A DNA stretch of 56,106 nt from Metabacillus rhizolycopersici (GTDB lineage Bacteria; Bacillota; Bacilli; Bacillales; Bacillaceae). A model generated the notes under the pieces. It saw only the letters and a list, made by a program, of their open reading frames with translations. It searched no databases and was not told the DNA's origin. The stretch covers positions 1-56,106 of the forward strand of contig NZ_JAIQUM010000034.1 of the NCBI RefSeq assembly GCF_020075705.1, given 5' to 3'. The position numbers and the translations under genes were made by a program. Shown one piece after another: positions 28,209 to 50,931 of the stretch (positions are counted from its first letter, which is position 1; each line of letters starts with the position of its first letter).

Positions 28209-28994
28209 TCAATATTTATAAGATTGTCCACCATCGATTGGAATAACGGTTGCGTTGATGAAGTTGGCTTGATCAGATAGTAGGAATGCCACTAAATAAC
28301 CCACTTCTTCTGGTTTACCGAAACGTTTCATTGGGTTTGGCTCAACAAATTGTTTTCCTACTTCTTCCCAGTTGTCTGGATCCATTTGTTTTAATGAACC
28401 TTCGACCATTGGTGTCATGATTGCGCCTGGTGCAATGGCTTTGACGCTGATTCCGTATTGTCCGTATTCAATTCCAGAGTTTCTTGTTAATCCGACCACG
28501 CCGTGTTTACTAGCTGCATAACCAGATTGGTTTCCTACCCCACGAATACCGCCAACAGAAGCAGTATTTACAATAGAGCCAAAGCCTTGTTCTCTCATAA
28601 CTTTCAATACGTGCTTCATACCGTAAAACACACCATTTAAGTTGACACTGACTACTTTTTGGAATTCATCAATCCCAAAATCCTCTGTTAGGTTTTGTTT
28701 TCCTTCGATCCCTGCGTTGTTGAAGAAACCATCGATTTTCCCAAATTTCTCAACTGTTTCATTTACATAGTTTTCAACTGCTTTTTCATCTGCCACATTC
28801 GCAGAGATAAGCAACACTTCTGCGTTTGGTGCAACTTCTAACACTTTACTTTTTGTTTCTTCTAATGAAGCAGCATTTAAATCAACGAGTGAAAGTTTTG
28901 CTCCTTCTTTTGCTATTTGTAAGGCAGAGGCTTGTCCTAAACCAGATCCTGCACCTGTAATTACTATGACTTTCCCATCAAAACGATTGCTCAT
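28209..28994 (-). CDS. Short-chain dehydrogenase, levodione reductase-like
   Basis: A 261-residue NAD(P)-dependent oxidoreductase. The Rossmann motif TGAGSGLG (about 13-20) is followed by Asp (LVDLN) favouring NAD, then NNAG, catalytic Ser (NTASVGG), and YAASK (Tyr-x3-Lys). Over most of its length, including DGFFNNAGIEGKQN, ASVGGIRGVGNQSGYAASKH and the ending IPIDGGQS, it agrees closely with levodione reductase of Corynebacterium aquaticum as I recall it, an enzyme for cyclic diketones. This suggests a cyclic ketone or alcohol substrate here. AAAGGAGG precedes the ATG. It lies 255 bases downstream of the next SDR on the same strand, at the edge of the catabolic island. Confidence 0.85.
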   Translation of the reverse strand: MSNRFDGKVIVITGAGSGLGQASALQIAKEGAKLSLVDLNAASLEETKSKVLEVAPNAEVLLISANVADEKAVENYVNETVEKFGKIDGFFNNAGIEGKQNLTEDFGIDEFQKVVSVNLNGVFYGMKHVLKVMREQGFGSIVNTASVGGIRGVGNQSGYAASKHGVVGLTRNSGIEYGQYGISVKAIAPGAIMTPMVEGSLKQMDPDNWEEVGKQFVEPNPMKRFGKPEEVGYLVAFLLSDQANFINATVIPIDGGQSYKY

Positions 28995-29249
28995 TTGAAA
29001 TTTCCTCCTTTATTTTTGTTTCTAGGTTTAAGAGGAAGATCCTATTATCGTAGGAAACGATAAATAACGTATGCTTAGATATCCCCTTTAATTATTTTTT
29101 AAAACATATCTCTTATTAAGGATATATAACGGTGAAAGTCACCTTTTCCTACTTAGTCCCCAGGTGGTACAAGTAATCCCACAAAGCTAGGTCGCGAAGA
29201 ACCATTCACTGTTTCAAGCTTGAAGCAAAAGATTCGTCCCCATGAATGA

Positions 29250-29987
29250 TTATTGCGCCGTATATCCACCATCAACCGTTAAGCTATTTCCAGTCATGAA
29301 TGAAGAATCATCAGAAGCCATGAATAATACTGCTTTTGCCATTTCTTCTACTTTACCAAGACGTTTCATCGGTGTTGCTGCAGCTAAAGCTTGCTTGCTT
29401 TCTTCCGGTATAATTGGTGTATCAATAAAACCAGGGCATAATGCGTTAATACGAATATTTTGTTCTGCATATTCAAGTGCAAGTGAACGAGTTAAGTTAA
29501 TCACGCCACCTTTTGCTGCGTTATAGGCTGCTGAACCAGGTGACCCAACCCAACCGTACATAGATGCCGTATTAACAATCGTACCGCCATCTGTTTTTAA
29601 CATTTCACGAATGGATTCACGTGCTACTAAGAAGACACCGTCTAAGTCAACATTTACGGTTTTGCGCCATTCTGAGTACTCTAAATCATGTGAAGGATGA
29701 ACACGACCGATACCCGCATTGTTGAAGACAACATCCACTTTGCCGAACGTTTCAACGGTTTGTTTAAAGATATTTGCGACTTCTTCTTCACTCGTAATAT
29801 TTGCTTTTATAAAAAGCGCTTCATAATTAAGCGCTTTCAACTCTTCCTCAAAAGCCTTCCCTTTTTCCTCGTTTAAATCAACAAGAACCACTTTGGCTCC
29901 TTCTGAAACGAATAAACGTGCTGTTTCTTCCCCAATACCAGATGCTCCGCCGGTAATCACAGCTACTTTATCTTGTAATTTTCCCAT
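29250..29987 (-). CDS. Short-chain dehydrogenase/reductase (SDR)
   Basis: A 245-residue classical SDR: TGGASGIG, Asp in LVDLN (NAD preference), NNAG, Ser in NTASMYGW, YNAAK, and C-terminal DGGYTAQ. It resembles cyclohexanol/cyclopentanol-type and 3-oxoacyl-ACP reductase-like dehydrogenases, which sequence alone does not separate. AGGAGG precedes the ATG. It is divergent from the tetR gene, with repeats in the shared promoter region, so TetR control is likely. Confidence 0.85.
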   Translation of the reverse strand: MGKLQDKVAVITGGASGIGEETARLFVSEGAKVVLVDLNEEKGKAFEEELKALNYEALFIKANITSEEEVANIFKQTVETFGKVDVVFNNAGIGRVHPSHDLEYSEWRKTVNVDLDGVFLVARESIREMLKTDGGTIVNTASMYGWVGSPGSAAYNAAKGGVINLTRSLALEYAEQNIRINALCPGFIDTPIIPEESKQALAAATPMKRLGKVEEMAKAVLFMASDDSSFMTGNSLTVDGGYTAQ

Positions 29988-30057
29988 CCTAAATCCTCCT
30001 AGTATTAAAAATTCTGTACCTCTTACCTGAGAAAAGTACTAGACAGATCTAATGTCT

Positions 30058-30099
30058 GTACTATTTTGTTTACAAATTAATTGTACTATTTTGTTCACA
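30058..30099. promoter_or_regulatory. Direct repeats in the SDR/tetR divergent promoter
   Basis: GTACTATTTTGTTTACA (30058-30074) and GTACTATTTTGTTCACA (30083-30099) differ at one base and start 25 bases apart. They lie about 70-110 bases before the SDR ATG and about 80-125 before tetR. Probable regulator binding sites or a duplicated promoter element. Confidence 0.5.
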
Positions 30100-30125
30100 T
30101 TTAACAATCATTAAGATATCATTAG

Positions 30126-30144
30126 GTGTCTACTAGTTAGACAC
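30126..30144. promoter_or_regulatory. Palindromic operator candidate before tetR
   Basis: GTGTCTA-CTAGT-TAGACAC is a 7-bp inverted repeat about 37 bases before the tetR start. A related pair (AGACAGA...TGTCTGT) lies at about 30041-30059. The size and position suit a TetR-type dimer. Confidence 0.5.
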
Positions 30145-30181
30145 TTATGATGAATCTGTCTATTTTGAGGGAGGTTTTTCT

Positions 30182-31302: not shown

Positions 31303-32157
31303 TTACTTAGTTACCTGCGCCAACAGGAAATCCGTTAATACACTATTAAACTCTTCAACTTTTTCCCATTGTGGCCAGTGTCCTGCGTCTTGAATGACCG
31401 TAAATTCACTATTAGGAATCATTTCTTGAAGTGGTTTTCCTTCTTCTACAGTTGAAGTAGGATCATGGCTAGTCCAAGCTAATAAAGTTGGAACATTAAT
31501 TTTGCCACACCAAGATGAATCCCAGCTGTATTGTTTTCTTACTTCGATATCTTGAAGACAAACAATATTATACACCGATTGTTGATACTCTGGTTGTGTA
31601 TAGATTTTATATCGTGCTTCGATTAGTTCTTCTGTTACTTGGCTTTTATCATACATGAGCCACTCAAGTCTTGTTTTTACATTTTCATAATTTGCTTCAA
31701 TGACTGCCTTTATAGTTGAATCTTTCAGTTTTTGCATCACTTCAGGTTTGTTATTCACATTTCCTGGCGTATTTAACACTAAGGCCTTCACATATTCGGG
31801 ATGATGTGCTGCAAACCAGGCAGCTACCCAACCGCCTAATGATTCACCTGAAATAAACGCTTGTGATAGATCCAATGCCTGCATAACCCCTAATAAATGA
31901 TCGCTGTAATAATCAATCCCATACGGTCGATTGGGTTTTTCTGTATAACCATGTCCTACCATATCAATACAAATAACGCGAAACTTTTCACTGAGACCTC
32001 TAATATTTCTTGCGTACGCTTCAATATGTCCCCCAGTACCATGAAGCAAAATAAGTGGTTCTCCACTACCAGCTTCAAGCACTCTTGTTTTTATTCCACC
32101 CGCATTTACATAGTGTAGTTTTAATTCCAAATCTGCTAAGTCCGTCCAAATTGTCAT
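31303..32157 (-). CDS. Meta-cleavage product C-C hydrolase (MhpC/HsaD-like), copy A
   Basis: A 284-residue alpha/beta hydrolase that would split the ring-fission product (a 2-hydroxy-6-oxo-dienoate) into 2-hydroxypenta-2,4-dienoate and a carboxylic acid. Oxyanion block LLHGTGGHIEAYARN, nucleophile Ser106 (SGESLGGW), acid Asp in TSHDPT and His in DAGHWPQWE are visible. GGGAGAG precedes the ATG. It is the last gene of operon A, 49 bases after the VOC dioxygenase. Copy B at 43854 is about 95% identical by eye (some 14 changes before the divergent C-termini). The acid released is unknown. Confidence 0.88.
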   Translation of the reverse strand: MTIWTDLADLELKLHYVNAGGIKTRVLEAGSGEPLILLHGTGGHIEAYARNIRGLSEKFRVICIDMVGHGYTEKPNRPYGIDYYSDHLLGVMQALDLSQAFISGESLGGWVAAWFAAHHPEYVKALVLNTPGNVNNKPEVMQKLKDSTIKAVIEANYENVKTRLEWLMYDKSQVTEELIEARYKIYTQPEYQQSVYNIVCLQDIEVRKQYSWDSSWCGKINVPTLLAWTSHDPTSTVEEGKPLQEMIPNSEFTVIQDAGHWPQWEKVEEFNSVLTDFLLAQVTK

Positions 32158-34342: not shown

Positions 34343-35227
34343 TTAAACTGATTCTTTAGCAAGTCTTTTTTTAGCAAACGTTTCTGCCACTTGTACAGCT
34401 GCTGATGTCATAATATCAAGGTTACCTGAATATTTAGGCAAATAATCACCTGCACCTTCTACCTCGATGAATACGGTTACTTTATTTCCTTCAATAATCG
34501 GTTCCGTTCGCAAGCGGTAGCCTGGCACATAAGATTGAACAGATTGAACCATTTCTTGAATCGATTGAATAACAGCATCCTCATTCATGCTACCTTCTTC
34601 GACTAACGCATGAACTGTATCACGCATTAAAATAGGAGGTTCTGCCGGATTTAAGATAATAATAGCTTTCCCCTTTTTAGCACCACCAATTGCTTCTATC
34701 CCATGTGCTGTTGTTACGGTAAATTCATCGATATTTGCACGTGTTCCAGGACCGGCACTTTTACTTGAAATCGTCGCAACAATTTCAGCATACTCGACAG
34801 GACTAACACGGTTAATCGCATGGACAATTGGAATCGTTGCTTGACCTCCACATGTTATTAAATTCACGTTATCCTTATCGATATGTTCTTCTAAATTTAC
34901 AGTTGGCACAATTAGCTCACCCACTGCAGCTGGTGTTAAGTCAAGCGCAATGATCCCTGCTTCCCGCAGCATCTTTGCATGGCGGACATGCGCCTTTGCA
35001 GCAGTAGCATCAAACACAATTTCTACATCGTGTTCTGTTTCAAGAAATCCCTTTAGCCCTGTGTCGACAACGTTATAGCCTTTTTCTTTAGCCCGTTGCA
35101 ACCCATCAGAATTCGGGTCAATTCCAATCATGGTCGTTACTTCCAACTCGTTTGAACGCTCCAATTTCATCAATAAATCGGTTCCGATATTACCTGAACC
35201 AAGGACTGCTACTTTTACTTTGCTCAT
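34343..35227 (-). CDS. Acetaldehyde dehydrogenase, acetylating (MhpF/DmpF/HsaG family)
   Basis: 294 residues; oxidises acetaldehyde with NAD and CoA to acetyl-CoA as partner of the aldolase. Rossmann motif [12 protein letters not shown] is near the N-terminus; the catalytic Cys is in [12 protein letters not shown]; conserved [14 protein letters not shown] follows. Two adjacent ATG codons exist (35230 and 35227); the GGTGGAG position favours the second. It sits between the hydroxylase (116 bases upstream) and the aldolase. This is the last step feeding central metabolism. Confidence 0.95.
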
Positions 35228-35346
35228 CATGTCTCCACCTTTCTTACTTTTGTTCGATTTAGAAGACTACCACAAAACCAGTAGTCTTGAGTATTATCAA
35301 TATACTAGAATTATTTATTTCGTTTTTTTTACATTATGAGATTGTT

Positions 35347-36528
35347 TTATCCCCTAACTTCTCCATCAAAACCAAATACTTCTTTTCCATAAGCGGCTAC
35401 TGAATCCTCATATAAAGATGTCTTATGTGTAGCTACTGATAAAATATCTCTAATAAATAATTCCATTGTTCCGCCTTTATAAAGTGCTGCTCCTCCAAGC
35501 GTTAAAAGTGCTCTTACAGCGATATCTGTACAGATCTTGATGATTTTTGTGCGGATCGCAAAGAATTCTGCTCGGCCTGTTTTCTTGCCGTCTTTTTCAT
35601 AGTTCTCTAATAAACGAATATATTTCTCCATCAATGCCTCTGCCGCATGAAAGTCTGTTGTCATTTCTGCTAATACTCTTTGACTGCGAGGGGATTCACT
35701 TTCACGTACTCCATCCATCAAGCGCACGCGTTTTTCCGTCAGTGTTTTAAACTCTGATAGAATCCGCTCTGCACCACCTAATGCCATGTTTGGAAACCCT
35801 AGATAAAAGGCAGGGAAAAATGGAACATGGTATAAAGGATAGTCCTTATCATACTCTTCCTCTGGTGGTCTACCTGTACGATCTGCTGCATTCAGGCGTA
35901 AAATACGATCCATCGGGACATACACGTTATCCGCAATCACTTGGTTACTTCCAGAACCTCTCAGCCCAAAAGTATCCCAATTTTCTACGATTTGAATGTC
36001 GGATGCCTTTAAGATTGGCAAACAAACTTCTGGCTTTTCCTGATCATCAAACTGAATCGCGACACCAACACCGATCCAATCGCTATATAAACAACCACTG
36101 GCAAAATTCCACGTTCCACTGATCAGGTATCCATCGCCATCCTTTTCTGCTTTGCCAACTGCTGCAAATACATCACAGATTAATCCACCTTGATTGACGA
36201 TTTCGTCTCTCCCTTTTGGTGGGAGGTAGGACGGCAACACATTATGTAGCGGATAAAGATACGTTAACCACGCTGCTGAAATATTGTAATTGGCAACTGT
36301 ACGAACCATCTTAGCAAACGTTTGCAAATCGATTTGTGGTCCACCATATTTCTTAGGAAGCATTAACCTGGATATTTGCGTTTCTTTGATCAAGTTAATG
36401 ACATTTTCAGAAATCGTCGCATTCATTTCTGCTTCTTTCGCTTCTGCTTCCGCTAATTTTCCAATCTTTTCTGCCCCAGCTAAAATCTGTTCAGCCGTTA
36501 CTTCTTCCTTTACTGCAATGTTCCCCAT
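35347..36528 (-). CDS. Flavin-dependent aromatic monooxygenase, oxygenase subunit (HsaA-like), copy A
   Basis: 393 residues with the acyl-CoA dehydrogenase fold, group D two-component monooxygenases (HsaA, HpaH-C2, DszC relatives). Expected reaction: ortho-hydroxylation of a phenol to a catechol with O2 and reduced flavin from a separate reductase. Visible: LPKKYGGPQIDLQTFAKMVR, AAWLTYLYPLHNVLP, SGTWNFASGC, WDTFGLRGSGSNQVIADNVYVP and TLGGAALYKGG. The length equals M. tuberculosis HsaA (about 394). AAAGGGGTG precedes the ATG. It leads operon A. Copy B (47391) is about 97% identical by eye, and about 200 bases of upstream sequence are duplicated too. No reductase lies in operon A, so it must borrow that of operon B. 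Confidence 0.87.
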   Translation of the reverse strand: MGNIAVKEEVTAEQILAGAEKIGKLAEAEAKEAEMNATISENVINLIKETQISRLMLPKKYGGPQIDLQTFAKMVRTVANYNISAAWLTYLYPLHNVLPSYLPPKGRDEIVNQGGLICDVFAAVGKAEKDGDGYLISGTWNFASGCLYSDWIGVGVAIQFDDQEKPEVCLPILKASDIQIVENWDTFGLRGSGSNQVIADNVYVPMDRILRLNAADRTGRPPEEEYDKDYPLYHVPFFPAFYLGFPNMALGGAERILSEFKTLTEKRVRLMDGVRESESPRSQRVLAEMTTDFHAAEALMEKYIRLLENYEKDGKKTGRAEFFAIRTKIIKICTDIAVRALLTLGGAALYKGGTMELFIRDILSVATHKTSLYEDSVAAYGKEVFGFDGEVRG

Positions 36529-36607: not shown

Positions 36608-36621
36608 TGATATCGCTTACA
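36608..36621 (-). promoter_or_regulatory. cre site (CcpA) before operon A
   Basis: On the minus strand TGTAAGCGATATCA matches the cre consensus TGWAANCGNTNWCA at every position. It lies 80 bases before the hydroxylase ATG and is conserved in copy B, which predicts carbon catabolite repression. Confidence 0.7.
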
Positions 36622-36690
36622 TTGATTCGTTCAATTTTTTCACTCATCAATTACTATCTATAGTCTATTAAATTCTTACTATTCAGAATA

Positions 36691-36738
36691 GGGCAAAAAT
36701 TGTTCAAGAATACCAATTTTACAGCAATTTTTGTCCAT
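36691..36738. promoter_or_regulatory. Inverted-repeat operator candidate, operon A
   Basis: GGGCAAAAATTGTTC (36691-36705) faces CAGCAATTTTTGTCC (36722-36736): CAAAAATTG and its reverse complement CAATTTTTG, about 20 bases apart. A similar arrangement stands before copy B. A likely binding site for the XylR_N/PucR-type activator encoded at 49051. Confidence 0.5.
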
Positions 36739-38945: not shown

Positions 38946-38957
38946 TTGTATTTCCTC

Positions 38958-41260: not shown

Positions 41261-42553
41261 CTAACTTGATATATTTTTAGTTAATTCTACATTTGCTGTA
41301 TGTTCAAATTTCTTCGGGCGTACAGCAACCAAGGCAAGTCCTCCAAAAACAAGAAGAAGTAATGCACTAACCTGAAAAGAGTAATGGAATCCCGAAGCTG
41401 GATTTGAAGCATTTTGAACGAGTAAACCTGTTACATATGGTCCAACGATACCACCTAATGAGGTGATTGCCATAAACCAACCTTGAATTTTACCATGATG
41501 CTTTTTAGAAACAAGCTCCACTAATATGGCAGGTCCTTGAACTAATGTAATACATCCAAAAGTTAACCCGAGGGATAGTAAAGCAATTGCCATGAAGTTA
41601 GAGCTTACCATCGTCCCAATAAAGTAGCAGACTGATCCCGCTAACAGGACAGATCCAAGAACAAACACTCGCGCTTTGACAACATTTTGAGTTTTACGAT
41701 ACAAACGGTCTGAAATTGCAGAAAATACGACTTGTGAAATCGTAATGAGAATCCAAGGTAGGGCTACAACAATTTGTAATTGTTCTGCACTTAGTTGACG
41801 AACATTCTCTAAGTAATTAGGGAGCCAATTTAATCCAATTGTAAATGACCAATATGTTGCGAAGCCACATAAAGCAACGAAGATGAAATTTTTAGAAAGT
41901 AAGACAGAAGAGAAGTTTGTTTCTGGTTGGATTGTGGATGTGCCAGAACCTACTTTTGTCGATGATGTTTCAACTGCTGAATCCTCTTTCTCTTTTACTA
42001 ACCATAACCATACAACAATCCAAATTACACCAACGATCCCAGTAGCTACAAAAGCTGTACGCCACCCAAAATTCATAATAAGATACATTAAAATTGGAGC
42101 TGATATTGCTACCCCAAGAGGTCCACCAATAGATACCATCGATATTCCTACTCCGAGTTTTTCCTTAGGAAGCCATCTAGATGCTGCAGTCATCGCTAAA
42201 GAGTATGAAGGTCCTTCACCCGCCCCTAAAATGATTCTCGTAATTAATAAAAATGTAAAGCTCGACACAAATATAGTTGAAAACTGAACGAGAGACCAAA
42301 CTGCTACCATTCCAACGATTACTTTTCCAATTCCAAACCGATCGGCAAGTGCACCACCTAGAATGGCTGATATTGAATACAATAAGAAGAAAACACTCCC
42401 TACAATTCCCCATTGCTCGGCAGTCAATCCTAGTTCCGCGATTATTGGAACAGAAGCAAATCCGATAATTGCCTTATCTGCATTACTAATCACAGTCAAT
42501 AAGAATAATAAGCTAATCACAATCCACGCTTTTTTTGTTTCCTTTTGAGCCAT
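41261..42553 (-). CDS. MFS transporter, likely aromatic-acid uptake (ACS type)
   Basis: A 430-residue protein with 12 TM segments and a central cytoplasmic loop (about 190-215). Marks: NADKAIIGFASVPIIAELGL in TM1, GGALADRFGIGKVIV, and ILGAGEGPSYSLAMTAASRW in TM4. It follows the hydratase gene on the same strand after 351 bases with its own cre-like site, so it is probably separately transcribed though functionally part of operon B. GGGGG lies before the ATG. The substrate is probably the organic acid degraded by the island (inference). Confidence 0.88.
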   Translation of the reverse strand: MAQKETKKAWIVISLLFLLTVISNADKAIIGFASVPIIAELGLTAEQWGIVGSVFFLLYSISAILGGALADRFGIGKVIVGMVAVWSLVQFSTIFVSSFTFLLITRIILGAGEGPSYSLAMTAASRWLPKEKLGVGISMVSIGGPLGVAISAPILMYLIMNFGWRTAFVATGIVGVIWIVVWLWLVKEKEDSAVETSSTKVGSGTSTIQPETNFSSVLLSKNFIFVALCGFATYWSFTIGLNWLPNYLENVRQLSAEQLQIVVALPWILITISQVVFSAISDRLYRKTQNVVKARVFVLGSVLLAGSVCYFIGTMVSSNFMAIALLSLGLTFGCITLVQGPAILVELVSKKHHGKIQGWFMAITSLGGIVGPYVTGLLVQNASNPASGFHYSFQVSALLLLVFGGLALVAVRPKKFEHTANVELTKNISS

Positions 42554-42904: not shown

Positions 42905-43696
42905 TTAATGAAAAGTAGCTTCTACTTTTCCTAAATGAGTAAATTCGGCTGTGAATCGATCTCCTTTTTGTGCATTTACTGCTGCCGATAATGCTCCTGA
43001 AAGAATAACTTCCCCAGCTTTAAGAATGACATCGTATTCAAATAATTTATTTGCTAGCCAAGCCACACATTTTGCTGGATTACCTAATACAGCTGATCCA
43101 TATCCCGTGTTCATAAGTTCTCCATTTTGATACAAATTCATTTCGATTTTTGTTAAGTCTAAATCAGTTACAGAAAATCTTTTATCTCCTAACACAAAGA
43201 GGCCGCAAGAAGCATTATCTGCAATGGTGTCTTGTAATTTTATTCTCCAATCAACGATTCTGCTGTCCACAATTTCTAAAGCAGGGACAATGTATTCGGT
43301 TGCGTCTAAGACATCCTCTATGGTGACAGATGGACCTTTCAGATCTTTATGGAGAACAAATGCAATCTCCGCTTCCACCTTGGGTTGGAAAACACGATTC
43401 ATTGTAATAACGCCATTATTACTAACTTCCATACTATCCAACAGATGCCCGTAATCCGGTTGGTCAACACCTAGCAGCTCCTGCATGGCAAGTGAAGTTA
43501 AACCAATTTTTTTGCCGACAATTCGTTGGCCGTCCTTTACTTTCTGATCAATGGCTTTCAATTGTACTTGATATGCCTCATCAACTGTCATATCTGGATA
43601 TAAATCTGTAAGTGGTTTAACAGTTTTCTTCTCTACTTCCGCCTGTAGCAAATGCTCATATGCCTGATTTTCTCGATCTTTTACTTGGTTGCTCAA
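42905..43696 (-). CDS. 2-keto-4-pentenoate hydratase (MhpD/HsaE family)
   Basis: A 263-residue enzyme adding water to 2-hydroxypenta-2,4-dienoate to give 4-hydroxy-2-oxovalerate. Marks: GKKIGLTSLAMQELLGVDQP, PKVEAEIAFVLHKDL (metal Glu-x-Glu), VPALEIVDSRI and GNPAKCVAWLANKL. Relatives include oxalocrotonate decarboxylases, but the absence of a dehydrogenase/tautomerase branch favours hydratase. Start codon TTG at 43696 with AAAGAGG upstream. It is the only copy, shared by both operons. A hairpin (43743-43768) precedes it. Confidence 0.9.
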   Translation of the reverse strand: MSNQVKDRENQAYEHLLQAEVEKKTVKPLTDLYPDMTVDEAYQVQLKAIDQKVKDGQRIVGKKIGLTSLAMQELLGVDQPDYGHLLDSMEVSNNGVITMNRVFQPKVEAEIAFVLHKDLKGPSVTIEDVLDATEYIVPALEIVDSRIVDWRIKLQDTIADNASCGLFVLGDKRFSVTDLDLTKIEMNLYQNGELMNTGYGSAVLGNPAKCVAWLANKLFEYDVILKAGEVILSGALSAAVNAQKGDRFTAEFTHLGKVEATFH

Positions 43697-43853: not shown

Positions 43854-44720
43854 TTATTTTGCTTCGATTAAATTACCCTTTTCCAATAGGAAGTTTGTTA
43901 ACACGCTGTTAAATTCTTCAACCTTTTCCCATTGTGGCCAGTGTCCCGCATCTTGAATGACTGCAAATTCACTATTTGGAATCATTTCTTGAAGCGGTTT
44001 TCCTTCCTCTACAGTTGAAGTAGGATCATGGCTAGTCCAAGCTAATAAAGTTGGAACATTAATTTTCCCACACCAAGATGGATCCCAGCTGTATTGTTTT
44101 CTTACTTCGATGTCTTGAAGGCAAACGATATTATACACCGATTGTTGATACTCTGGTTGTGTATAGATTTTATACCGTGCTTCGATTAGTTCTTCTGTTA
44201 CTTGGCTTTTATCATACATTAGCCACTCAAGTCTTGTTTTTACATTTTCATAGTTTGCTTCAATAACTGCCTTTATAGTTGAATCTTTCAGTTTTTGCAT
44301 CACTTCAGGTTTGTTGTTCACGTTTCCTGGCGTATTTAAAACTAAGGCCTTCACATATTCAGGATGATGTGCTGCAAACCAAGCTGCTACCCAACCGCCT
44401 AATGATTCACCGGAAATATACGCTTCCGACAAATCCAAAGCCTGCATAACCCATAATAAATGATCACTATAATAGTCGATTCCATATGGACGATTTGGTT
44501 TGTCTGTATATCCATGTCCAACCATATCAATAACGATTACTCGAAAAGTTTCACTGAGGCCTCTAATATTTCTTGCGTACGCTTCAATATGTCCCCCAGT
44601 ACCATGAAGCAAAATAAGTGGTTCTCCACTACCAGCTTCAAGCACTCTTGTTTTTATTCCACCCGCATTTATATAGTGAAGTTTTAATTCTAAATCTGCT
44701 AAGTCCGTCCAAATTGTCAT
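43854..44720 (-). CDS. Meta-cleavage product C-C hydrolase (MhpC/HsaD-like), copy B
   Basis: A 288-residue alpha/beta hydrolase, duplicate of the gene at 31303, with the same nucleophile motif (SGESLGGW, Ser106) and acid/His motifs (TSHDPT, DAGHWPQWE). Substitutions are few and mostly early (YINAGG, SETFRVIVIDM, LLWVM, EAYISG). The C-terminus differs completely after LTNFLL (EKGNLIEAK against AQVTK), as if the duplication ended there. GGGGAGAG precedes the ATG, also conserved. It follows the MhpB-like dioxygenase, so it probably hydrolyses that enzyme's product. Confidence 0.88.
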   Translation of the reverse strand: MTIWTDLADLELKLHYINAGGIKTRVLEAGSGEPLILLHGTGGHIEAYARNIRGLSETFRVIVIDMVGHGYTDKPNRPYGIDYYSDHLLWVMQALDLSEAYISGESLGGWVAAWFAAHHPEYVKALVLNTPGNVNNKPEVMQKLKDSTIKAVIEANYENVKTRLEWLMYDKSQVTEELIEARYKIYTQPEYQQSVYNIVCLQDIEVRKQYSWDPSWCGKINVPTLLAWTSHDPTSTVEEGKPLQEMIPNSEFAVIQDAGHWPQWEKVEEFNSVLTNFLLEKGNLIEAK

Positions 44721-44894
44721 CTCAATCTCTCCCCTTTTTTTAATAAATAAAGTAGAATCACATTCTACTAAATAACAAACCCATCTATGGTCATAGAGTG
44801 AATATCATGTACCTGTATTCATTTTTTATAATAAGATTACATTTCCTACTGGAATGATAATCATTTTGCTTAAACGAATACTAATTATTTATGG

Positions 44895-45878
44895 TTACTT
44901 AATTGTTTCGTATTCAGACGATTTATTACTTTTATTTTGATTAATCGGCTGAGTGAACTGTACAATCGCCATTCCTGTTACCCATTCTGGAATCGGCTCA
45001 TAGTATGCCACCTCTGTTTCAAAGTTTTGGAGGGCACCCAACAATACAAGCCAGTTGTGGATTTCTTGGCCTCCATTCCCGCCATTTTCCTCAATAAATT
45101 CAGGGCTCCATTTTCTTAAAGCTTGAAAATCCCTTTCAGTAATTAAACGCAAAAACTCTCGATCCCATTCTTCATTCACTGGACCTGATTTAATTTGTGT
45201 GACTCTTGTTTTTCGTGTTTGTAAGTATTCGTCAAGTTGTTCGATTTCTTGTCGGCCATTTTTTAATATGTGAATCAACTGTTGATCCTCTGGTTTCTCA
45301 CTATCAATTTTTGGAATTGGTACCCAATGAGATAATCCACCTGACGCAACAATTGCCACTTTTTTATCAGAATCCCACGACTCAATCGATTTACGTATCA
45401 TTTCACCTACTTGGAAACAACGATCCATTGTTGGTAACGGTGGTGCAGATGTATTTACAGCGATTGGAACAACCGGTATGTTTAGATCTGAGTTTAAGAA
45501 ATAAATAGATTGCGTATGACCATGATCTACCTTCATTGACATTGTAAATGTAAAATCAATATTATTTTCTAAACTAGTTTGGAGGATATGCTTTGCCAAG
45601 TCTTGCTGTACAGGAATTTTGTATTCTGGTATTTGCCAGTCTCCCCATCCTTCACATTTACCGATTCCGATTGTAAACGCAGGCATATGATCATAGAAAT
45701 AACTGTTAAAATGATCATCTGAAACCAATACGATAATATCTGCCCCACTATCTTCCAACCATTTCTTCATTTCGCTTGTTTTTTCAAGAAACCGCTTCCC
45801 TTTTTCTCCACCGCCAGCTTCATTCGTCATGATCATTGGACTGTGTGACATTGCGATACCTGCGATAATTTCAGCCAT
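44895..45878 (-). CDS. Extradiol dioxygenase, class III (MhpB/LigB type)
   Basis: A 327-residue Fe(II)-dependent ring-cleaving enzyme of the LigB superfamily, unrelated in fold to the VOC enzyme of operon A. Motifs align with E. coli MhpB (2,3-dihydroxyphenylpropionate 1,2-dioxygenase) as recalled: MSHSPM, SDDHFNSYFYDHMPAFTIGI, MKVDHGHTQSIYFL, SGGLSHWVPIP, NEEWDREFLRLI and the C-terminal YYEPIPEWVTG. His residues in SHSP, DDHF, DHGH and LSHW supply the metal and acid/base positions. An in-frame GTG at 45887 is possible, but AAGGGAG 8 bases before ATG 45878 decides the start. Substrate: probably a 3-alkyl or carboxyalkyl catechol. Confidence 0.88.
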   Translation of the reverse strand: MAEIIAGIAMSHSPMIMTNEAGGGEKGKRFLEKTSEMKKWLEDSGADIIVLVSDDHFNSYFYDHMPAFTIGIGKCEGWGDWQIPEYKIPVQQDLAKHILQTSLENNIDFTFTMSMKVDHGHTQSIYFLNSDLNIPVVPIAVNTSAPPLPTMDRCFQVGEMIRKSIESWDSDKKVAIVASGGLSHWVPIPKIDSEKPEDQQLIHILKNGRQEIEQLDEYLQTRKTRVTQIKSGPVNEEWDREFLRLITERDFQALRKWSPEFIEENGGNGGQEIHNWLVLLGALQNFETEVAYYEPIPEWVTGMAIVQFTQPINQNKSNKSSEYETIK

Positions 45879-45922
45879 TTTCCCCACTCCCTTAAGAACT
45901 TATGAAATAATGATTTTAGCTT

Positions 45923-46768
45923 TTAATATACTAATACATTCGTATTTACGTGCTTAGTTTTGACATCCTCTACTCTGATTTGACGGTGCCATACAATGGA
46001 TAGATTTCCTTTCATGAATATGGGGATCTTCTTCACACATTTCAGAGATTGACCTTCTTGTTTTTCCATTACAATCACTTCAGTTTGCGTTGAACCCATC
46101 TCATTTTTCAGCGTGACAGCATAGCGACCGGGTGCAGGGAGTGTATAGTATGGGCTAAGTTTAAATAACATTCCGTCCCAGTCACATTTTACTTCATAAG
46201 AGTATCCGAGATAGTTAGGCAACTCCTCGACATGGCCTTTTGACAATTTTTCTCGAATGCATGATGAACTGATTTTCTGACCACACCATTCAACCTTAGA
46301 CACCTTTGTCACTTCAAGGAGACCACCCGAATCATTTTTGAGGCGATCCATATTCCCTGCTCCAAGACTGCCATACGTATAGTCGAAGCCAGCGACTGCA
46401 TGGACGACACCGAGCCCAATCAAATATTTAGTCACAAACTGTTCTGGTGAAAGCGCAGCAAAATCTTTGTCGAATTCAATTATATAAAACGTATCAACAC
46501 CCAATGTTTGGAGCATTTTCTCTTTTTCAGAAAGCGGCAATAAATAATCTACACGCTTTTTCCCATTGGATAAAATGGTTTTAGGGTGCGGGAAAAAACT
46601 CATGACAGAAAGTGAGAGATTCTTTTCCTTCGCTTTCCGTGTAGCTGTTTCAATCACCAGGCGATGTCCTTTATGAATGCCGTCAAAAAATCCAAGTGCA
46701 ATAACGCTTGTTCTTGCCCTTTTCTGCCAGTGTGCCAAATTGGTTGGGTTCAAATAAATCGTCTCCAT
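45923..46768 (-). CDS. FAD synthetase (RibF-like) without a functional riboflavin kinase domain
   Basis: 281 residues. The N-terminal adenylyltransferase domain is complete: GFFDGIHKGH (26-35) and SSSCIREKL (167-175). The C-terminal 90 residues keep a trace of the riboflavin kinase fold (LPAPGRYAV, 210-218) but lack the PTAN nucleotide motif of bifunctional RibF (usually about 310-320 residues). It therefore should make FAD from FMN only. It lies between the flavin reductase and the ring-cleavage gene, so it is a pathway-dedicated cofactor gene; the cell presumably has its own housekeeping ribF elsewhere. A TTG at 46783 is open, but AAAGGAG lies inside that extension and serves the ATG at 46768. 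Confidence 0.85.
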   Translation of the reverse strand: METIYLNPTNLAHWQKRARTSVIALGFFDGIHKGHRLVIETATRKAKEKNLSLSVMSFFPHPKTILSNGKKRVDYLLPLSEKEKMLQTLGVDTFYIIEFDKDFAALSPEQFVTKYLIGLGVVHAVAGFDYTYGSLGAGNMDRLKNDSGGLLEVTKVSKVEWCGQKISSSCIREKLSKGHVEELPNYLGYSYEVKCDWDGMLFKLSPYYTLPAPGRYAVTLKNEMGSTQTEVIVMEKQEGQSLKCVKKIPIFMKGNLSIVWHRQIRVEDVKTKHVNTNVLVY

Positions 46769-46790
46769 ACGATCTCCTTTCAAACGTAAT

Positions 46791-47270
46791 CTACAATGCT
46801 GCTGTTTTTTCTTCTGTCAATGAACGATAACGTCCACTGTAAAAAATGAGTGGCTCAGCATCTTCAAGGTGAATATCTGTCACTTTCCCAATAAATAAAG
46901 TATGGTCACCTTCAACATGCTCAGCTGATACTTCACAAGCTATTTGTGCGACAGCACCAGGTGTAACCGGTTTGCCATCAAGACGATCAAACTCGACTTC
47001 ACGGTGTTCTTTCAACTGACCAGCAAAAATCATTGAAAGTTCCTGTTGATCTGCTGCTAAAATATTAACTGTGAATATTTTACTTTGTTTAATTTTGTTA
47101 AGAATTCGTGCGTTTTCTCCGATTGAGATAACAACAAGCTTTGGATTAATTGACACAGACATGAAAGCATTTGCTGTCATACCATGCACTTCTCCTTCCA
47201 CCTCTGTCGCTATCACTGTTACACCTGTTGCAAATTTCCCCATTGCATTACGAAATTGACGATCATCCAT
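46791..47270 (-). CDS. Flavin reductase (HsaB/HpaC-like)
   Basis: A 159-residue reductase component that uses NAD(P)H to give reduced FMN/FAD to the group D oxygenase encoded immediately upstream. Typical marks: FRNAMGKFATGVTVIATEVE, VHGMTANAFMSVSINPKLVV, the motif ILAADQQELSMIFAG, and GDHTLFIGKVTDI. The upstream ATG at 47294 precedes AGGAGG, so the ATG at 47270 (MDDRQF) is the start. It is the only reductase in the island and would have to serve both oxygenase copies. 22 bases separate it from the FAD synthetase gene. Confidence 0.92.
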   Translation of the reverse strand: MDDRQFRNAMGKFATGVTVIATEVEGEVHGMTANAFMSVSINPKLVVISIGENARILNKIKQSKIFTVNILAADQQELSMIFAGQLKEHREVEFDRLDGKPVTPGAVAQIACEVSAEHVEGDHTLFIGKVTDIHLEDAEPLIFYSGRYRSLTEEKTAAL

Positions 47271-47390
47271 TTTAAAATTCCTCCTATTTTTCATGTATTG
47301 GAATAAAATTTTCTATTTATCAATGACTTAGACAAAATCCTTCTAAATCTAACTATTAAACTAGTTATAAAGTATGGATACTTCCTTCTT

Positions 47391-48572
47391 TTATCCTCTA
47401 ACTCCACTCTCGAAATCAAATACTTCTTTTCCATAGGCAGCTACTGAATCCTCATATAGCGATGTCTTATGTGTAGCTACTGATAAAATATCTCTAATAA
47501 ATAATTCCATTGTTCCGCCTTTATAAAGTGCTGCTCCTCCAAGCGTTAAAAGTGCTCTTACAGCGATGTCTGTACAGATCTTGATTATTTTTGTTCTAAT
47601 CGCAAAGAATTCTGCTCGGCCTGTTTTCTTCCCATCTTTTTCATAGTTCTCTAATAAACGAATATATTTATCCATCAATGCTTCTGCCGCATGAAATTCT
47701 GTTGTCATTTCTGCTAATACCCTTTGACTACGAGGTGATTCACTTTCACGTACTCCATCCATTAAGCGCACACGTTTTTCAGTAAGTGTTTTAAACTCTG
47801 AAAGGATCCGCTCTGCACCACCTAATGCCATGTTTGGAAATCCTAGATAAAATGCAGGGAAAAATGGAACATGGTATAGTGGATAGTCTTTATCATAATC
47901 CTCCTCTGGTGGTCTACCTGTACGATCTGCTGCATTTAGGCGTAAAATACGTTCCATCGGGACATACACGTTATCCGCAATTACTTGGTTACTTCCAGAA
48001 CCTCTTAATCCAAAGGTATCCCAATTTTCTACGATTTGAATGTCGGATGCCTTTAAGATTGGCAAACAAACTTCTGGCTTTTCCTGATCATCAAACTGAA
48101 TCGCAACACCAAGACCAAGCCAATCGCTATATAAACAACCACTGGCAAAATTCCACGTCCCACTTATGCGATACCCGTCACCATCCTTTTCCGCCTTTCC
48201 AACTGCTGCAAATACATCACAGATTAATCCACCTTGATTGACGATTTCGTCTCTCCCCTTCGGAGGAAGATAGGACGGCAACACATTATGTAGCGGATAA
48301 AGATACGTTAACCACGCTGCTGAAATATTGTAATTGGCAACTGTACGAACCATCTTCGCAAACGTGTGCAAATCGATTTGTGGTCCACCATATTTCTTAG
48401 GAAGCATTAACCTGGATATTTGCGTTTCTTTGATCAAGTTAATGACATTTTCAGAAATCGTCGCATTCCTTTCTGCTTCCTTCGCTTCTGCTTCCGCTAA
48501 TTTCCCAATCTTTTCTGCTCCAGCTAAAATCTGCTCAGCCGTTACTTCTTCCTTTACTGCAATGTTCCCCAT
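47391..48572 (-). CDS. Flavin-dependent aromatic monooxygenase, oxygenase subunit (HsaA-like), copy B
   Basis: 393 residues, near-identical to copy A (about 12-15 substitutions by eye, such as ERNA for EMNA, DWLGLG for DWIGVG, MERI for MDRI, and the end VFDFESGVRG). Same acyl-CoA-dehydrogenase-like architecture and expected phenol to catechol reaction. The next gene is its flavin reductase, so this copy is the one with a complete two-component system. It leads operon B, and its promoter region is duplicated with the gene. AAAGGGGTG precedes the ATG. Confidence 0.88.
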   Translation of the reverse strand: MGNIAVKEEVTAEQILAGAEKIGKLAEAEAKEAERNATISENVINLIKETQISRLMLPKKYGGPQIDLHTFAKMVRTVANYNISAAWLTYLYPLHNVLPSYLPPKGRDEIVNQGGLICDVFAAVGKAEKDGDGYRISGTWNFASGCLYSDWLGLGVAIQFDDQEKPEVCLPILKASDIQIVENWDTFGLRGSGSNQVIADNVYVPMERILRLNAADRTGRPPEEDYDKDYPLYHVPFFPAFYLGFPNMALGGAERILSEFKTLTEKRVRLMDGVRESESPRSQRVLAEMTTEFHAAEALMDKYIRLLENYEKDGKKTGRAEFFAIRTKIIKICTDIAVRALLTLGGAALYKGGTMELFIRDILSVATHKTSLYEDSVAAYGKEVFDFESGVRG

Positions 48573-48651
48573 ATTTACACCCCTTTGTTTACTTATGGTT
48601 TATTTGATTTTGCATAAATACGTTGATATTGATGGTCTTTGATTCAACAAT

Positions 48652-48665
48652 TGACATCGCTTACA
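48652..48665 (-). promoter_or_regulatory. cre site (CcpA) before operon B
   Basis: Minus-strand TGTAAGCGATGTCA matches TGWAANCGNTNWCA throughout. Its one difference from the operon A site is at a position the consensus leaves open. Confidence 0.7.
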
Positions 48666-48735
48666 TTGTTTCCTTCAAGCTTTTTTTCTTATCAATTACT
48701 ACCTATAGTGTATTAAATTCGCAATTTTCATAATA

Positions 48736-48784
48736 GAACAAAAATTGTCCATGTTTTTTCTCTTATTGACTATTTTTTGTCCAT
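48736..48784. promoter_or_regulatory. Inverted-repeat operator candidate, operon B
   Basis: GAACAAAAATTGTCC (48736-48750) faces GACTATTTTTTGTCC (48768-48782), matching in position and largely in sequence the pair before operon A. Flanking sequence has diverged more than the boxes. Confidence 0.5.
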
Positions 48785-49011
48785 CTAACAAATATCAAGA
48801 CTAATTACTCCTATAAGGTAAACTTCCTTCAGTCGTTTGTAGGACGTACATACATATTTCCGGGTAGTTTATCCCGCACTTTTCTTATTCAACAAAACTT
48901 TGAAGTGAGGTTTGCCTAATTTACGATTAAAAAAACTTGGCTTATCTTACATTCCTTATGGCGAAAGTCTTAGTTTTCCTTATGCTAATTTTAAATTCTA
49001 ATAGAATAAAA

Positions 49012-49053
49012 ATAGAAAAGGCCAACCAGTTAGAAACTGGACGGCCTTTTCTA
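49012..49053 (-). terminator. Terminator of the regulator gene
   Basis: AGAAAAGGCC and CCAGTT pair with AACTGG and GGCCTTTTCT around a short loop; it overlaps the last codons of the regulator gene region. Confidence 0.75.
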
Positions 49054-50931
49054 TTCGATATCTAATTCACCTAAAACGATTAAGGATTTTAAAATCAGTA
49101 ATAATTGATGTGTTTCATTTGGATCTCGAAGATCCTTTTCTAGTAAACTTTCTATCTTATTAATCCTATGCCTTAAACCACTCATTGATAGAGAAAGATC
49201 ACTCATAGTTTGCTCAAGCTTCCCACCATTTAGCAAGAAATTGTATAACGTTTTAAGGAGTTCTTTCGTTTTGGGGTCTGTCATTTTATATAGAGGTCCA
49301 AGTTCTTGTTCCGCTGTCATTTTAATGCCACTTATATTTTTTGAGTTAATTAGTACCCCTACAATCCCTAATGTTTTAAATGGAACAATTTTTTTCCTTC
49401 CTGTTAATCGTAGGGCAATCATTGCTTCCTCATAGTATTTTGCAGCATGTTTTATCCCGTCGCCTACATTACTAATTCCAAATTTAAAATCACCTTGAGG
49501 ATATTTCACTATCATAAAATCATGGAAATTTTCCATCACATCATATATAGTAGGCTTCTTGAGAGTTTCATTCGTTATAAATAGAATCATCTTTCCATCA
49601 CGTTGACATACTAGGATATTATGTTTTTTTTCACTAAAGTAGCGAAAGGTAGTGTCGAAGATTTTTTCCTGCAAAAGAAATTCTTCCTCAATAGACGTTT
49701 GCGATTTTTTATAATCCATCACCGTTATATAATAAGGCTGTCCAAGATCTAGACCCGTATACTTTCCCCTTTTGATTAATTCACTTGCAGTGAATTGTCC
49801 GTCTAATATTTGTTCTAGAAAATTCCCCTTCATCCTCTCAAAAGATTCAAATTTAGTCTTTTCATTTAATAGAATAAGAGAAGCCGCATTTGCAAAGCGA
49901 TCTAGAAACAAATAATCTTCCTCATATTTGTCATTTTTTCTTTCCTCATAAATAAAGCTACAATACCCCAAAACCTCCTTTTGAACAAGAATTGGCGTAA
50001 CAAGACGTTCCTGATTGAGGGTTTTAATTGTTTTTTTTCTAAACGGTAATAGACTTTTTTCCTTTCTTTTTATCGTATTTTTATGTGCATTTTCTTGAAT
50101 ATATTGTTCCATATCATCTTTCAGTTCTAGATATTTTACTTCAGATAAACCTGAATAAGTAATCGTTTGATGATCTATATCTTCAATGATGATTGGTAAT
50201 TGAACGATGTCATATACCATATTGGCAATCGTTTGCAAATTACTTCCATTGGTTATCTCTTCCGTTATTTTTTTTTGAAAATCTGCCAAACGTGTAACGA
50301 AGTTTTTTTGTTCAAGCATTTGTTCGTACGTATACTCTAGTTCCTTTACGATAGGTGTTTCATTGTAAAAAGGAAGTTCATCTTGCATTTCACTTTCCCA
50401 TTCTTTTTGTGTCCTTAAGATCCAACTGCATTCTGAATCTCCCTTTCCGACACACGTTACTTCTTTAGCAAGAAGTGGCTCGCCACCTACCGTTGACATA
50501 AATCCACTTGAATAACCGATAAGTGTATGACAGACTGGAGATGTAGATTTACCTAATTGTTTTATATGTTCCTCTGCCTCATAAGAATCAATCCAAGTCC
50601 CCGTTGAAAAATAGGATAGGATGTTATGATTTTCATCCAATTCAACGTTGCATTCATGCCTTATCCCTCTGATATGACCATTATTAATATGAAGAATTGG
50701 TCCATATTTGATCATATATTCTAACGATAAACCCTTTTTCAAAGCTTCTTTAGCATCATTAACGCCCGTTTCCCACCCGAAATGGAAAAGAAAACCTTTT
50801 AGTCTATCTATCCCTATATTCCTAACCAACTCTTTCCTGAGAATCCCAAAAGCCGATGAGGGGAATACAATTTTACGATCATTTACTACTAAATTCTGGC
50901 TAATACTCTCATCATAGAAATTGATTTTCAT
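49051..50931 (-). CDS. Aromatic-responsive activator: XylR_N-V4R sensor with PucR/CdaR-type output
   Basis: 626 residues. The first 180 form a DmpR/XylR-type sensor: XylR_N (about 10-110, GFLFHFGWETGVNDAKEAL) and V4R (about 118-180, PVCHTLIGYSSGF and KEVTCVGKGDSECSWIL) with likely zinc Cys134, Cys160 and Cys168. Then a GAF-like domain (about 225-355), a CdaR-type GGDEF-like region (about 370-510) and a C-terminal PucR HTH_30 (about 560-620, LEQTMSDLSLSMSGLRHRIN). DmpR/XylR use a sigma-54 AAA+ module instead; none is present. It should bind an aromatic effector and activate operons A and B. An in-frame GTG at 50940 is possible, but AGGGTG spacing favours ATG 50931. A cre-like site lies upstream. 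Confidence 0.85.
   Translation of the reverse strand: MKINFYDESISQNLVVNDRKIVFPSSAFGILRKELVRNIGIDRLKGFLFHFGWETGVNDAKEALKKGLSLEYMIKYGPILHINNGHIRGIRHECNVELDENHNILSYFSTGTWIDSYEAEEHIKQLGKSTSPVCHTLIGYSSGFMSTVGGEPLLAKEVTCVGKGDSECSWILRTQKEWESEMQDELPFYNETPIVKELEYTYEQMLEQKNFVTRLADFQKKITEEITNGSNLQTIANMVYDIVQLPIIIEDIDHQTITYSGLSEVKYLELKDDMEQYIQENAHKNTIKRKEKSLLPFRKKTIKTLNQERLVTPILVQKEVLGYCSFIYEERKNDKYEEDYLFLDRFANAASLILLNEKTKFESFERMKGNFLEQILDGQFTASELIKRGKYTGLDLGQPYYITVMDYKKSQTSIEEEFLLQEKIFDTTFRYFSEKKHNILVCQRDGKMILFITNETLKKPTIYDVMENFHDFMIVKYPQGDFKFGISNVGDGIKHAAKYYEEAMIALRLTGRKKIVPFKTLGIVGVLINSKNISGIKMTAEQELGPLYKMTDPKTKELLKTLYNFLLNGGKLEQTMSDLSLSMSGLRHRINKIESLLEKDLRDPNETHQLLLILKSLIVLGELDIE

What the first reader, a model, noticed from the sequence alone, without database searches (positions are those of the whole stretch)
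28209..50931. Two parallel meta-cleavage operons with duplicated hydroxylase and hydrolase but two unrelated ring-cleavage dioxygenases
Operon A pairs an HsaA-like hydroxylase with a VOC-type extradiol dioxygenase; operon B pairs a near-identical hydroxylase with an MhpB/LigB-type dioxygenase. Each has its own near-identical C-C hydrolase. The reductase, FAD synthetase and hydratase exist only in B, and the aldolase and acetaldehyde dehydrogenase only in A, so neither operon is complete alone. Together they cover every function of the actinobacterial HsaABCDEFG set. It looks like one pathway split in two to handle two catechols, in a Bacillaceae genome where such clusters are seldom described. 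Fold and step assignments rest on visible motifs; the substrates are unknown.
Basis: partly seen in the sequence, partly recalled or inferred. Interest (0 to 1): 0.72.

Follow-up and report, generated by a model that had tools for sequence, protein, structure and literature searches.

The report
Twin operons, swapped ring-cleaving enzymes
A Bacillus relative carries two copies of part of an aromatic-degradation pathway, with nearly the same first and third enzymes but an unrelated ring-opening enzyme in each, most likely two interchangeable tools for one job rather than a pathway split for two foods.

Summary
Operon B (48572-42905, reverse strand) has hydroxylase, flavin reductase, FAD synthetase, LigB-type dioxygenase, hydrolase, hydratase. 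Operon A (36528-31303) has hydroxylase, acetaldehyde dehydrogenase, aldolase, VOC-type dioxygenase, hydrolase. Hydroxylases are 96.7% and hydrolases 95% identical; both pairs are under purifying selection (dN/dS about 0.06).

"One pathway split for two catechols" is not favoured. In relatives this is one conserved Bacillales cluster whose dioxygenase slot holds either LigB (29 clusters) or VOC (16), never both. The type changes at least 3 times on the hydroxylase tree. The window's hydroxylases are sisters, and so are its hydrolases, while the dioxygenases are unrelated, so at least one operon is a recombinant. Both leaders share a dyad operator, present at up to 4 mismatches in 43 of 45 such leaders against 12-15% of controls, beside a single regulator gene.

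Best reading: two non-homologous, probably isofunctional dioxygenases in one regulon. In relatives LigB also sits in Hca-like (phenylpropionate dioxygenase) clusters, suggesting 3-(2,3-dihydroxyphenyl)propionate as the catechol; this is inference. No assay or expression data exist here. New variant of a known kind.

The parts
49051..50940 (-). regulator: XylR_N + V4R sensor domains, PucR-type C-terminal HTH
   Evidence: PF06505, PF02830, PF17853, PF13556; MobR model NF041906 94 bits, cut-off 999
48733..48751 (-). operator-like dyad upstream of operon B, TGGACA-N5-TGTTCTAT
   Evidence: dyad at <=4 mismatches in 43 of 45 hydroxylase leaders; protein binding not tested
48656..48667 (-). second conserved leader element AATGTAAGCGAT, operon B
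47391..48572 (-). oxyB, group D flavin hydroxylase (HsaA / pHPA hydroxylase C2-like)
   Evidence: NF045920 160 bits (cut-off 650), NF045629 159 bits (cut-off 450), both below cut-off; nearest solved chains Rv3094c 7f70 1.5e-32 and pHPA hydroxylase C2 2jbr 3e-30
46791..47294 (-). flavin reductase
   Evidence: PF01613 1.2e-39
45923..46783 (-). FAD synthetase without a recognised riboflavin kinase domain
   Evidence: PF06574 8.9e-45; no flavokinase match
44895..45887 (-). LigB-type (MhpB-like) extradiol dioxygenase
   Evidence: PF02900 4e-49; PRK13370 model 195 bits, cut-off 291; MhpB 8k04 2e-37
43854..44720 (-). hydB, C-C bond hydrolase
   Evidence: PF00561; HsaD model 126 bits, cut-off 400
42905..43696 (-). 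2-hydroxypentadienoate hydratase
   Evidence: TIGR03220 324 bits, cut-off 409, so a relative rather than a confirmed equivalog
41261..42553 (-). MFS transporter; a homologue is in 27 of 41 related cluster loci
   Evidence: PF07690; counts
36688..36706 (-). operator-like dyad upstream of operon A, TGAACA-N5-TGCCCTAT
   Evidence: it marks the outer end of the duplicated block
36612..36623 (-). second conserved leader element AATGTAAGCGAT, operon A
35347..36528 (-). oxyA, 96.7% identical to oxyB
   Evidence: dN/dS 0.062
34343..35230 (-). acetaldehyde dehydrogenase (acylating)
   Evidence: TIGR03215 459 bits
33299..34330 (-). 4-hydroxy-2-oxovalerate aldolase
   Evidence: TIGR03217 534 bits
32207..33163 (-). 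VOC-type extradiol dioxygenase (HpaD-like)
   Evidence: TIGR02295 366 bits above cut-off; PDB 1f1r 8e-63
31303..32157 (-). hydA, 95% identical to hydB
   Evidence: dN/dS 0.057

Best explanation
One regulon, not a pathway divided between two catechols. A phenolic compound, probably an acid, is hydroxylated by either hydroxylase copy, both using the single flavin reductase and FAD from operon B. The resulting 3-substituted catechol is opened next to the substituted carbon by either of two non-homologous dioxygenases, LigB or VOC, to one meta-cleavage product. Either hydrolase copy splits this to a carboxylic acid and 2-hydroxypentadienoate, and the hydratase (B), aldolase and acetaldehyde dehydrogenase (A) finish the job. 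The two operons share copied leader, hydroxylase and hydrolase but not the genes between, so at least one is a recombinant; most likely operon A joined copies from a LigB-type operon to a VOC dioxygenase of the VOC lineage and the aldolase-dehydrogenase pair, but the direction is not settled. Shown: gene content, duplication, selection on both copies, exchange of dioxygenase type in relatives, common operator-like dyad. Inferred: every reaction step, that both dioxygenases cleave the same catechol, that the V4R/PucR protein binds the dyad, and that the catechol is 3-(2,3-dihydroxyphenyl)propionate or a close analogue (about 0.4).
For: Slot: LigB in 29 and VOC in 16 of 45 clusters, never both in one; six VOC clusters (L011, L019, L021, L022, L034, L154) have the gene order oxy-red-fad-VOC-hyd-hydratase that LigB clusters have with LigB. 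At least 3 changes of type on the hydroxylase tree; 5 (4 forced by starred branches) with 16 chosen database proteins added, 9 of them typed only by equal contig length. One clade of VOC-type rows is rejected, p 2e-44 with the window. hydA and hydB are sisters (98) and sit among LigB-type clusters (supports 82-94); the window VOC pairs with that of N. bataviensis (93) inside the VOC lineage. Hydrolases of two VOC clusters (L011, L021) share a starred set of six with those of three Hca-LigB clusters and L015. dN/dS 0.062 and 0.057 at dS 0.26 and 0.36. Dyad at <=3 mismatches in 38 of 45 leaders against 1.6-3.3% of controls; <=4 in 28 of 29 LigB and 15 of 16 VOC leaders against 11.6-15.4%. LigB lies beside HcaE-, HcaF- and HcaB-like genes in relatives, and 5 of 6 of those LigBs nest among the hydroxylase-cluster LigBs. 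MhpB's acid/base His115 and His179 (PMC5291488, passages) align with His122 and His187, invariant in 15 of 15.
Against: No enzyme assay or expression data. Without the window's operon A the one-clade hypothesis is rejected only weakly (p 0.043). The VOC passes the homoprotocatechuate dioxygenase model, so a different substrate is possible. A slot can also switch because the catechol changes. N. bataviensis keeps its VOC beside an HpaB-type hydroxylase, and LigB but no VOC was seen in the six Hca-like clusters. The dyad consensus was read from the same leaders on which it was counted; by that consensus three more places in the window match at 3 mismatches, and no Hca-like locus has it at <=2.
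Confidence: 0.57

Rival explanations
1. One reading: two operons for two catechols; the dioxygenases differ in substrate and the duplicated hydroxylases and hydrolases are broad.
For: Both copies of each duplicated gene are under purifying selection. The VOC passes TIGR02295 while LigB resembles MhpB. Four of 42 genomes hold a LigB and a VOC in different clusters.
Against: 13 differences in 393 residues between the hydroxylases make a change of substrate class unlikely; both operons share leader and dyad; either type fills the same slot elsewhere.
Confidence: 0.25
2. The VOC is a true 3,4-dihydroxyphenylacetate 2,3-dioxygenase and operon A a rudimentary Hpa pathway.
For: TIGR02295 366 bits above cut-off; closest solved structure is homoprotocatechuate dioxygenase; metal and catalytic residues kept.
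Against: No Hpa dehydrogenase, isomerase or decarboxylase was recognised among the window genes scanned (not every ORF of the window was scanned); a C-C hydrolase follows instead. R243 is Tyr in 18 of 18 orthologue rows while R293 stays; that these arginines bind the acid side chain is recalled, from no call.
Confidence: 0.1
3. Decaying redundancy: one operon is a leftover partial copy, and the mix of parts is accidental.
For: Two truncated genes lie between the operons; the VOC relative in Alkalihalobacillus sp. BA299 carries two in-frame stops while its LigB is intact.
Against: dS 0.26-0.36 with dN/dS about 0.06 and a preserved dyad show long maintenance.
Confidence: 0.08

Closest known systems
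E. coli hca + mhp pathway (3-phenylpropionate and 3-hydroxyphenylpropionate; pathway recalled)
   Same: LigB-type ring cleavage, C-C hydrolase, hydratase, aldolase and dehydrogenase; in relatives LigB stands beside HcaE/F/B-like genes
   Different: The hydroxylase is a two-component group D enzyme; LigB is below the MhpB cut-offs; Rieske alpha subunits of three relatives below the HcaE cut-off (505-520 of 830); a VOC enzyme can stand in
Homoprotocatechuate 2,3-dioxygenases, known in a VOC form (TIGR02295) and a LigB-like form (TIGR02298)
   Same: Precedent for one reaction named for both of these unrelated folds (models matched by our VOC and LigB; solved chain 8iq8 matched by the LigB profile)
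   Different: There the product goes to a dehydrogenase route (recalled); here both forms occupy one slot of one cluster and coexist in one likely regulon
phe operon of Geobacillus stearothermophilus (PMC2590616, abstract and passages read)
   Same: Bacillaceae meta pathway with two-component hydroxylase, hydratase, aldolase, dehydrogenase and a large regulator of 642 aa
   Different: Acts on phenol, has decarboxylase and tautomerase, lacks a recognised semialdehyde hydrolase, has one dioxygenase
Actinobacterial HsaABCDEFG
   Same: The same list of functions
   Different: None of the four Hsa models tested (A, B, C, D) reaches its cut-off
Pseudomonas pseudoalcaligenes C70, two catechol meta pathways (PMC5336314, passages read)
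   Same: Two redundant meta operons in one strain
   Different: Its two enzymes are both catechol 2,3-dioxygenases placed in one phylogeny, and belong to phenol and naphthalene-type pathways

Membership tests
HsaABCD steroid cluster | HsaA equivalog score (NF045629, cut-off 450) | tested here: not met
   160 and 159 bits
HsaABCD steroid cluster | HsaB equivalog score (NF045630, cut-off 230) | tested here: not met
   107.5 bits
HsaABCD steroid cluster | HsaC equivalog score (NF045631, cut-off 450) | tested here: not met
   VOC 24 bits
HsaABCD steroid cluster | HsaD equivalog score (NF045632, cut-off 400) | tested here: not met
   127 and 126 bits
MhpB (3-carboxyethylcatechol 2,3-dioxygenase) | PRK13370 model cut-offs (286-549) | tested here: not met
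   best 195 bits against 291
MhpB (3-carboxyethylcatechol 2,3-dioxygenase) | acid/base pair His115/His179 | tested here: met
   align with His122/His187, invariant in 15 of 15 (numbering checked)
MhpB (3-carboxyethylcatechol 2,3-dioxygenase) | cleavage of 3-(2,3-dihydroxyphenyl)propionate | not testable with these tools
   needs an assay
VOC homoprotocatechuate dioxygenase (HpaD) | TIGR02295 score above 321 | tested here: met
   366 bits
VOC homoprotocatechuate dioxygenase (HpaD) | H155, H214, E267 metal ligands and H200, Y257, H248 (roles recalled) | tested here: met
   conserved in 18 of 18 orthologue rows, 17 distinct genes
VOC homoprotocatechuate dioxygenase (HpaD) | R243 and R293 (acid-side-chain role recalled) | tested here: inconclusive
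   R293 kept, R243 replaced by Tyr in 18 of 18 rows
VOC homoprotocatechuate dioxygenase (HpaD) | activity on 3,4-dihydroxyphenylacetate | not testable with these tools
   needs an assay
2-oxopent-4-enoate hydratase (DmpE) | TIGR03220 score above 409 | tested here: not met
   324 bits, the best of the related models
4-hydroxy-2-oxovalerate aldolase / acylating dehydrogenase pair | TIGR03217 and TIGR03215 scores | tested here: met
   534 and 459 bits, above cut-offs

The most novel reading that the evidence does not exclude
The ring-cleavage step of a Bacillales aromatic-acid regulon is an interchangeable slot in which two unrelated dioxygenase folds have replaced each other repeatedly. In this strain both are kept side by side, each with its own copy of the neighbouring enzymes and the same operator, because the two folds tolerate different conditions (for example metal supply, oxygen or product inhibition) while cleaving one and the same catechol.
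Probability: 0.25. Interest if true: 0.7.

Novelty: new variant of a known kind. Interest (0 to 1): 0.5.

Why it matters
It offers a natural experiment: the enzymes before and after ring cleavage are held nearly constant while the cleavage enzyme differs in fold. That makes it directly testable whether LigB and VOC dioxygenases are exchangeable and why a cell would keep both. It also gives a conserved operator-like dyad and a likely regulator for an aromatic pathway in Bacillales for which the literature searches made here found little.

Tried and rejected
Plasmid origin: operon B with its regulator (42905-50940) has no near match in 72,556 plasmid records. Hsa identity: rejected by cut-offs. 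A promoter-consensus scan of the two leaders gave counts near or modestly above the shuffled mean (5 against 2.0, sd 1.6; 3 against 1.6, sd 1.1) and was not used. Literature on residues R243 and R293 of homoprotocatechuate dioxygenase: the one paper listed concerned another enzyme's Arg293 (passages), so that role stays recalled. A Bacillus ligniniphilus catechol 2,3-dioxygenase paper (PMC8671467) and a phenylpropanoate paper (PMC9956071) gave nothing on this cluster in the passages seen. Prior description of the slot exchange: not seen in the listings of searches, which cover an open-access library only. Structure prediction was not run, since the family scans already separate the two folds.

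Rows dropped: from the hydroxylase tree and the dyad counts, L128 (same cluster as L018), L035 (no dioxygenase of either type near), the second hydroxylase of L018 (next to a 31% VOC paralogue) and hydroxylases under 58% identity. The first tree still held L035 and L128. L018 was left out of the VOC, hydrolase, dehydrogenase and aldolase trees because L128 covers that place (L128 ends inside its second hydrolase, 40% of columns filled). The 16 proteins added were picked by me from the 120 listed; nine got their type only from equal contig lengths, seven stayed untyped. In some searches at most five candidates per genome were scored. The 18 VOC orthologue rows hold 17 distinct genes, one of them (L044) interrupted.
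Full report
What is there. On the reverse strand, a regulator gene is followed by operon B: hydroxylase - flavin reductase - FAD synthetase - LigB dioxygenase - hydrolase - hydratase - MFS. Operon A runs hydroxylase - acetaldehyde dehydrogenase - aldolase - VOC dioxygenase - hydrolase. Hydroxylases share 380 of 393 residues and hydrolases 270 of 284. Similarity is confined to two blocks: one from 178 bases before the hydroxylase start to just past its stop codon, the other from just before the hydrolase start to near its end, both about 93% identical (direct-repeat search agrees). The genes between the blocks are unrelated. Both pairs show dS 0.26 and 0.36 with dN/dS 0.062 and 0.057, so both copies have been kept by selection; divergence of this size does not fit an assembly artefact or a fresh duplication.

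Host. The best database match of the hydroxylase oxyB is a Metabacillus litoralis protein (99%; 96% to oxyA). No M. litoralis protein is among the 120 listed for the LigB or the VOC; there the nearest are metagenome proteins, 95% and 97%. No genome is held for the window, and operon B has no near match among the plasmid records.

Relatives. A scan of one genome per species (84,980) gave 61 loci. L001-L046 are from Bacillales; 41 of them hold the cluster with one dioxygenase type or the other. Mapping shows a shared plan: V4R regulator - hydroxylase - reductase - FAD synthetase - dioxygenase - hydrolase - hydratase - MFS, with dehydrogenase and aldolase next to it in some. Within the stored stretch, which is sometimes cut by a contig end, homologues at 40% or more are present in 37 (regulator), 35 (reductase), 38 (FAD synthetase), 29 (hydratase), 27 (MFS) and 17 (dehydrogenase, and likewise aldolase) of the 41. 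The dioxygenase position is filled by LigB in 29 and by VOC in 16 of the 45 clusters counted, the window's two included, and never by both. Among the VOC clusters, six have the LigB-type order (L011, L019, L021, L022, L034, L154), five read oxy-VOC-hyd (L029, L036-L039), four read oxy-hyd-VOC (L027, L030, L031, L033), and the last is operon A.

Whole genomes. Of 42 genomes behind these loci, 29 have a LigB homologue (67-83% identity) and 16 a VOC orthologue (58-87%). Four have both (N. bataviensis LMG 21833, Cytobacillus stercorigallinarum, C. kochii, Alkalihalobacillus sp. BA299, the VOC of the last with two in-frame stops), and one has neither. Only three of the 42 have two hydroxylases at 70% or more to oxyB (77/72 in N. 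bataviensis, 76/72 in N. rhizophilus, 76/75 in Bacillus sp. B15-48); the B15-48 pair is 81% alike and carries LigB twice. So a near-identical pair with different dioxygenases was seen in none of the 42. In an order-wide draw of 397 genomes the VOC is found in 3, one of them the centre of the draw, and LigB in 2: the cluster is rare overall but not special to this strain.

History. On the hydroxylase tree the dioxygenase type changes at least three times, all forced by starred branches; a careful tree also needs three, and holding all VOC-type rows together is rejected with p 2e-44, though only with p 0.043 when the window row is left out. With 16 more database proteins, nine of them typed by equal contig length only, five changes are needed, four of them forced. 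In the window the two hydroxylases are sisters (99) and the two hydrolases are sisters (98), but the dioxygenases are unrelated, so at least one operon is a recombinant. The hydrolases sit among LigB-type clusters (supports 82-94, none starred), and the window VOC pairs with that of N. bataviensis (93) inside the VOC lineage, which makes operon A the likelier chimera.

One regulon. Both hydroxylase leaders carry a dyad, TGRACA-N5-TGYYCTAT, at 48751-48733 and 36706-36688; the pattern written from these two has no other match in the window at up to three mismatches. AATGTAAGCGAT lies about 85 bases downstream, exact in both. The consensus TGAACA-N5-TGTTCTAG occurs at three mismatches or fewer in 38 of 45 leaders, against 3.3% of 900 random 300-mers of the same loci and 1.6% of 900 shuffled leaders; at four or fewer in 28 of 29 LigB-type and 15 of 16 VOC-type leaders, against 11.6% and 15.4%. 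The VOC-type matches are weaker: at two or fewer, 5 of 16 against 21 of 29. By this consensus three further places in the window match at up to three mismatches, and the six Hca-like loci have none at up to two. The consensus was derived from these leaders; its dyad symmetry and its sharing by both types are the stronger points. The regulator gene next to operon B, with XylR_N, V4R and PucR-type domains, is the natural candidate to bind it; that is inference.

Which catechol. In six relatives (L122, L123, L124, L126, L127, L155) LigB and a hydrolase stand, without the hydroxylase in the stretch seen, in a cluster with an SDR gene, a PucR-like regulator and two ORFs of the size of Rieske dioxygenase subunits. 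Where scanned, the alpha subunits of L122, L124 and L126 score 505-520 bits with the 3-phenylpropionate dioxygenase model HcaE against 168-184 with the benzoate model, all below the HcaE cut-off of 830. L124's beta subunit (177 bits, cut-off 145) and dihydrodiol dehydrogenase (365 bits, cut-off 330) pass the PRK models of this pathway, though not the stricter HcaF and HcaB equivalogs. Five of these six LigBs nest within the LigBs of hydroxylase clusters, next to those of B15-48; the sixth (L126) lies outside. LigB's nearest solved relative is MhpB, and MhpB's acid/base histidines (named in PMC5291488, passages read) are conserved in 15 of 15. This points to 3-(2,3-dihydroxyphenyl)propionate or a near analogue, reached either by hydroxylation or by dioxygenation. 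No VOC was seen in an Hca-like cluster. The VOC keeps the metal and catalytic residues of homoprotocatechuate dioxygenase and Arg293, but has Tyr for Arg243 in 18 of 18 orthologue rows; the nine distant VOC paralogues have lost both arginines. The role of these arginines is recalled, not read.

How it most likely works. Both hydroxylases make one catechol, both dioxygenases open it, both hydrolases split the product, and the single hydratase, aldolase and dehydrogenase finish. Exchange of LigB for VOC has a parallel: two curated models named 3,4-dihydroxyphenylacetate 2,3-dioxygenase exist, one matched by our VOC and one by our LigB. Why both are kept here is open; different metal or oxygen needs are a guess.

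Verdict. Observation confirmed; split-for-two-catechols not favoured but not excluded; a new variant of a known kind, of moderate interest.

Noticed in passing
window 45923-46783: FAD synthetase gene with only the FMN adenylyltransferase domain recognised (no riboflavin kinase domain); a homologue sits in 38 of 41 related cluster loci, suggesting a dedicated FAD supply for the hydroxylase.
   Followed up: partly
window 40626-41018: N-terminal fragment of a sulfatase (130 aa, profile positions 1-61 of 301), probably a gene remnant.
   Followed up: no
window 36964-37614: Fragment of a MocR-like / aminotransferase protein on the + strand, 216 aa, between the two operons, probably a remnant.
   Followed up: no
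window 37695-40223: M20 amidohydrolase and a second MFS transporter lie between the operons; in the loci mapped the only M20 match was 35% (L130).
   Followed up: partly
window 28209-30787: Two SDR genes and a divergent TetR gene downstream of operon A; no link to the pathway shown, though an SDR at 47-51% identity lies near clusters L001, L038 and L039.
   Followed up: partly
L015:4964-13900: Bacillus sp. B15-48 has two hydroxylase-LigB pairs in tandem around a V4R regulator gene (hydroxylases 81% alike), another partial duplication of the cluster.
   Followed up: partly
L044 / G026:C5:28825-29748: VOC orthologue in Alkalihalobacillus sp. BA299 with two in-frame TAG stops, while a LigB gene elsewhere in the genome is open.
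   Followed up: no
genome G001 (L001, Niallia endozanthoxylica): Six hydroxylase matches (E <= 1e-100) and 16 VOC matches in one genome, pointing to a larger family of related modules.
   Followed up: no
window 696-7577: A 2293-aa open reading frame that was not analysed.
   Followed up: no
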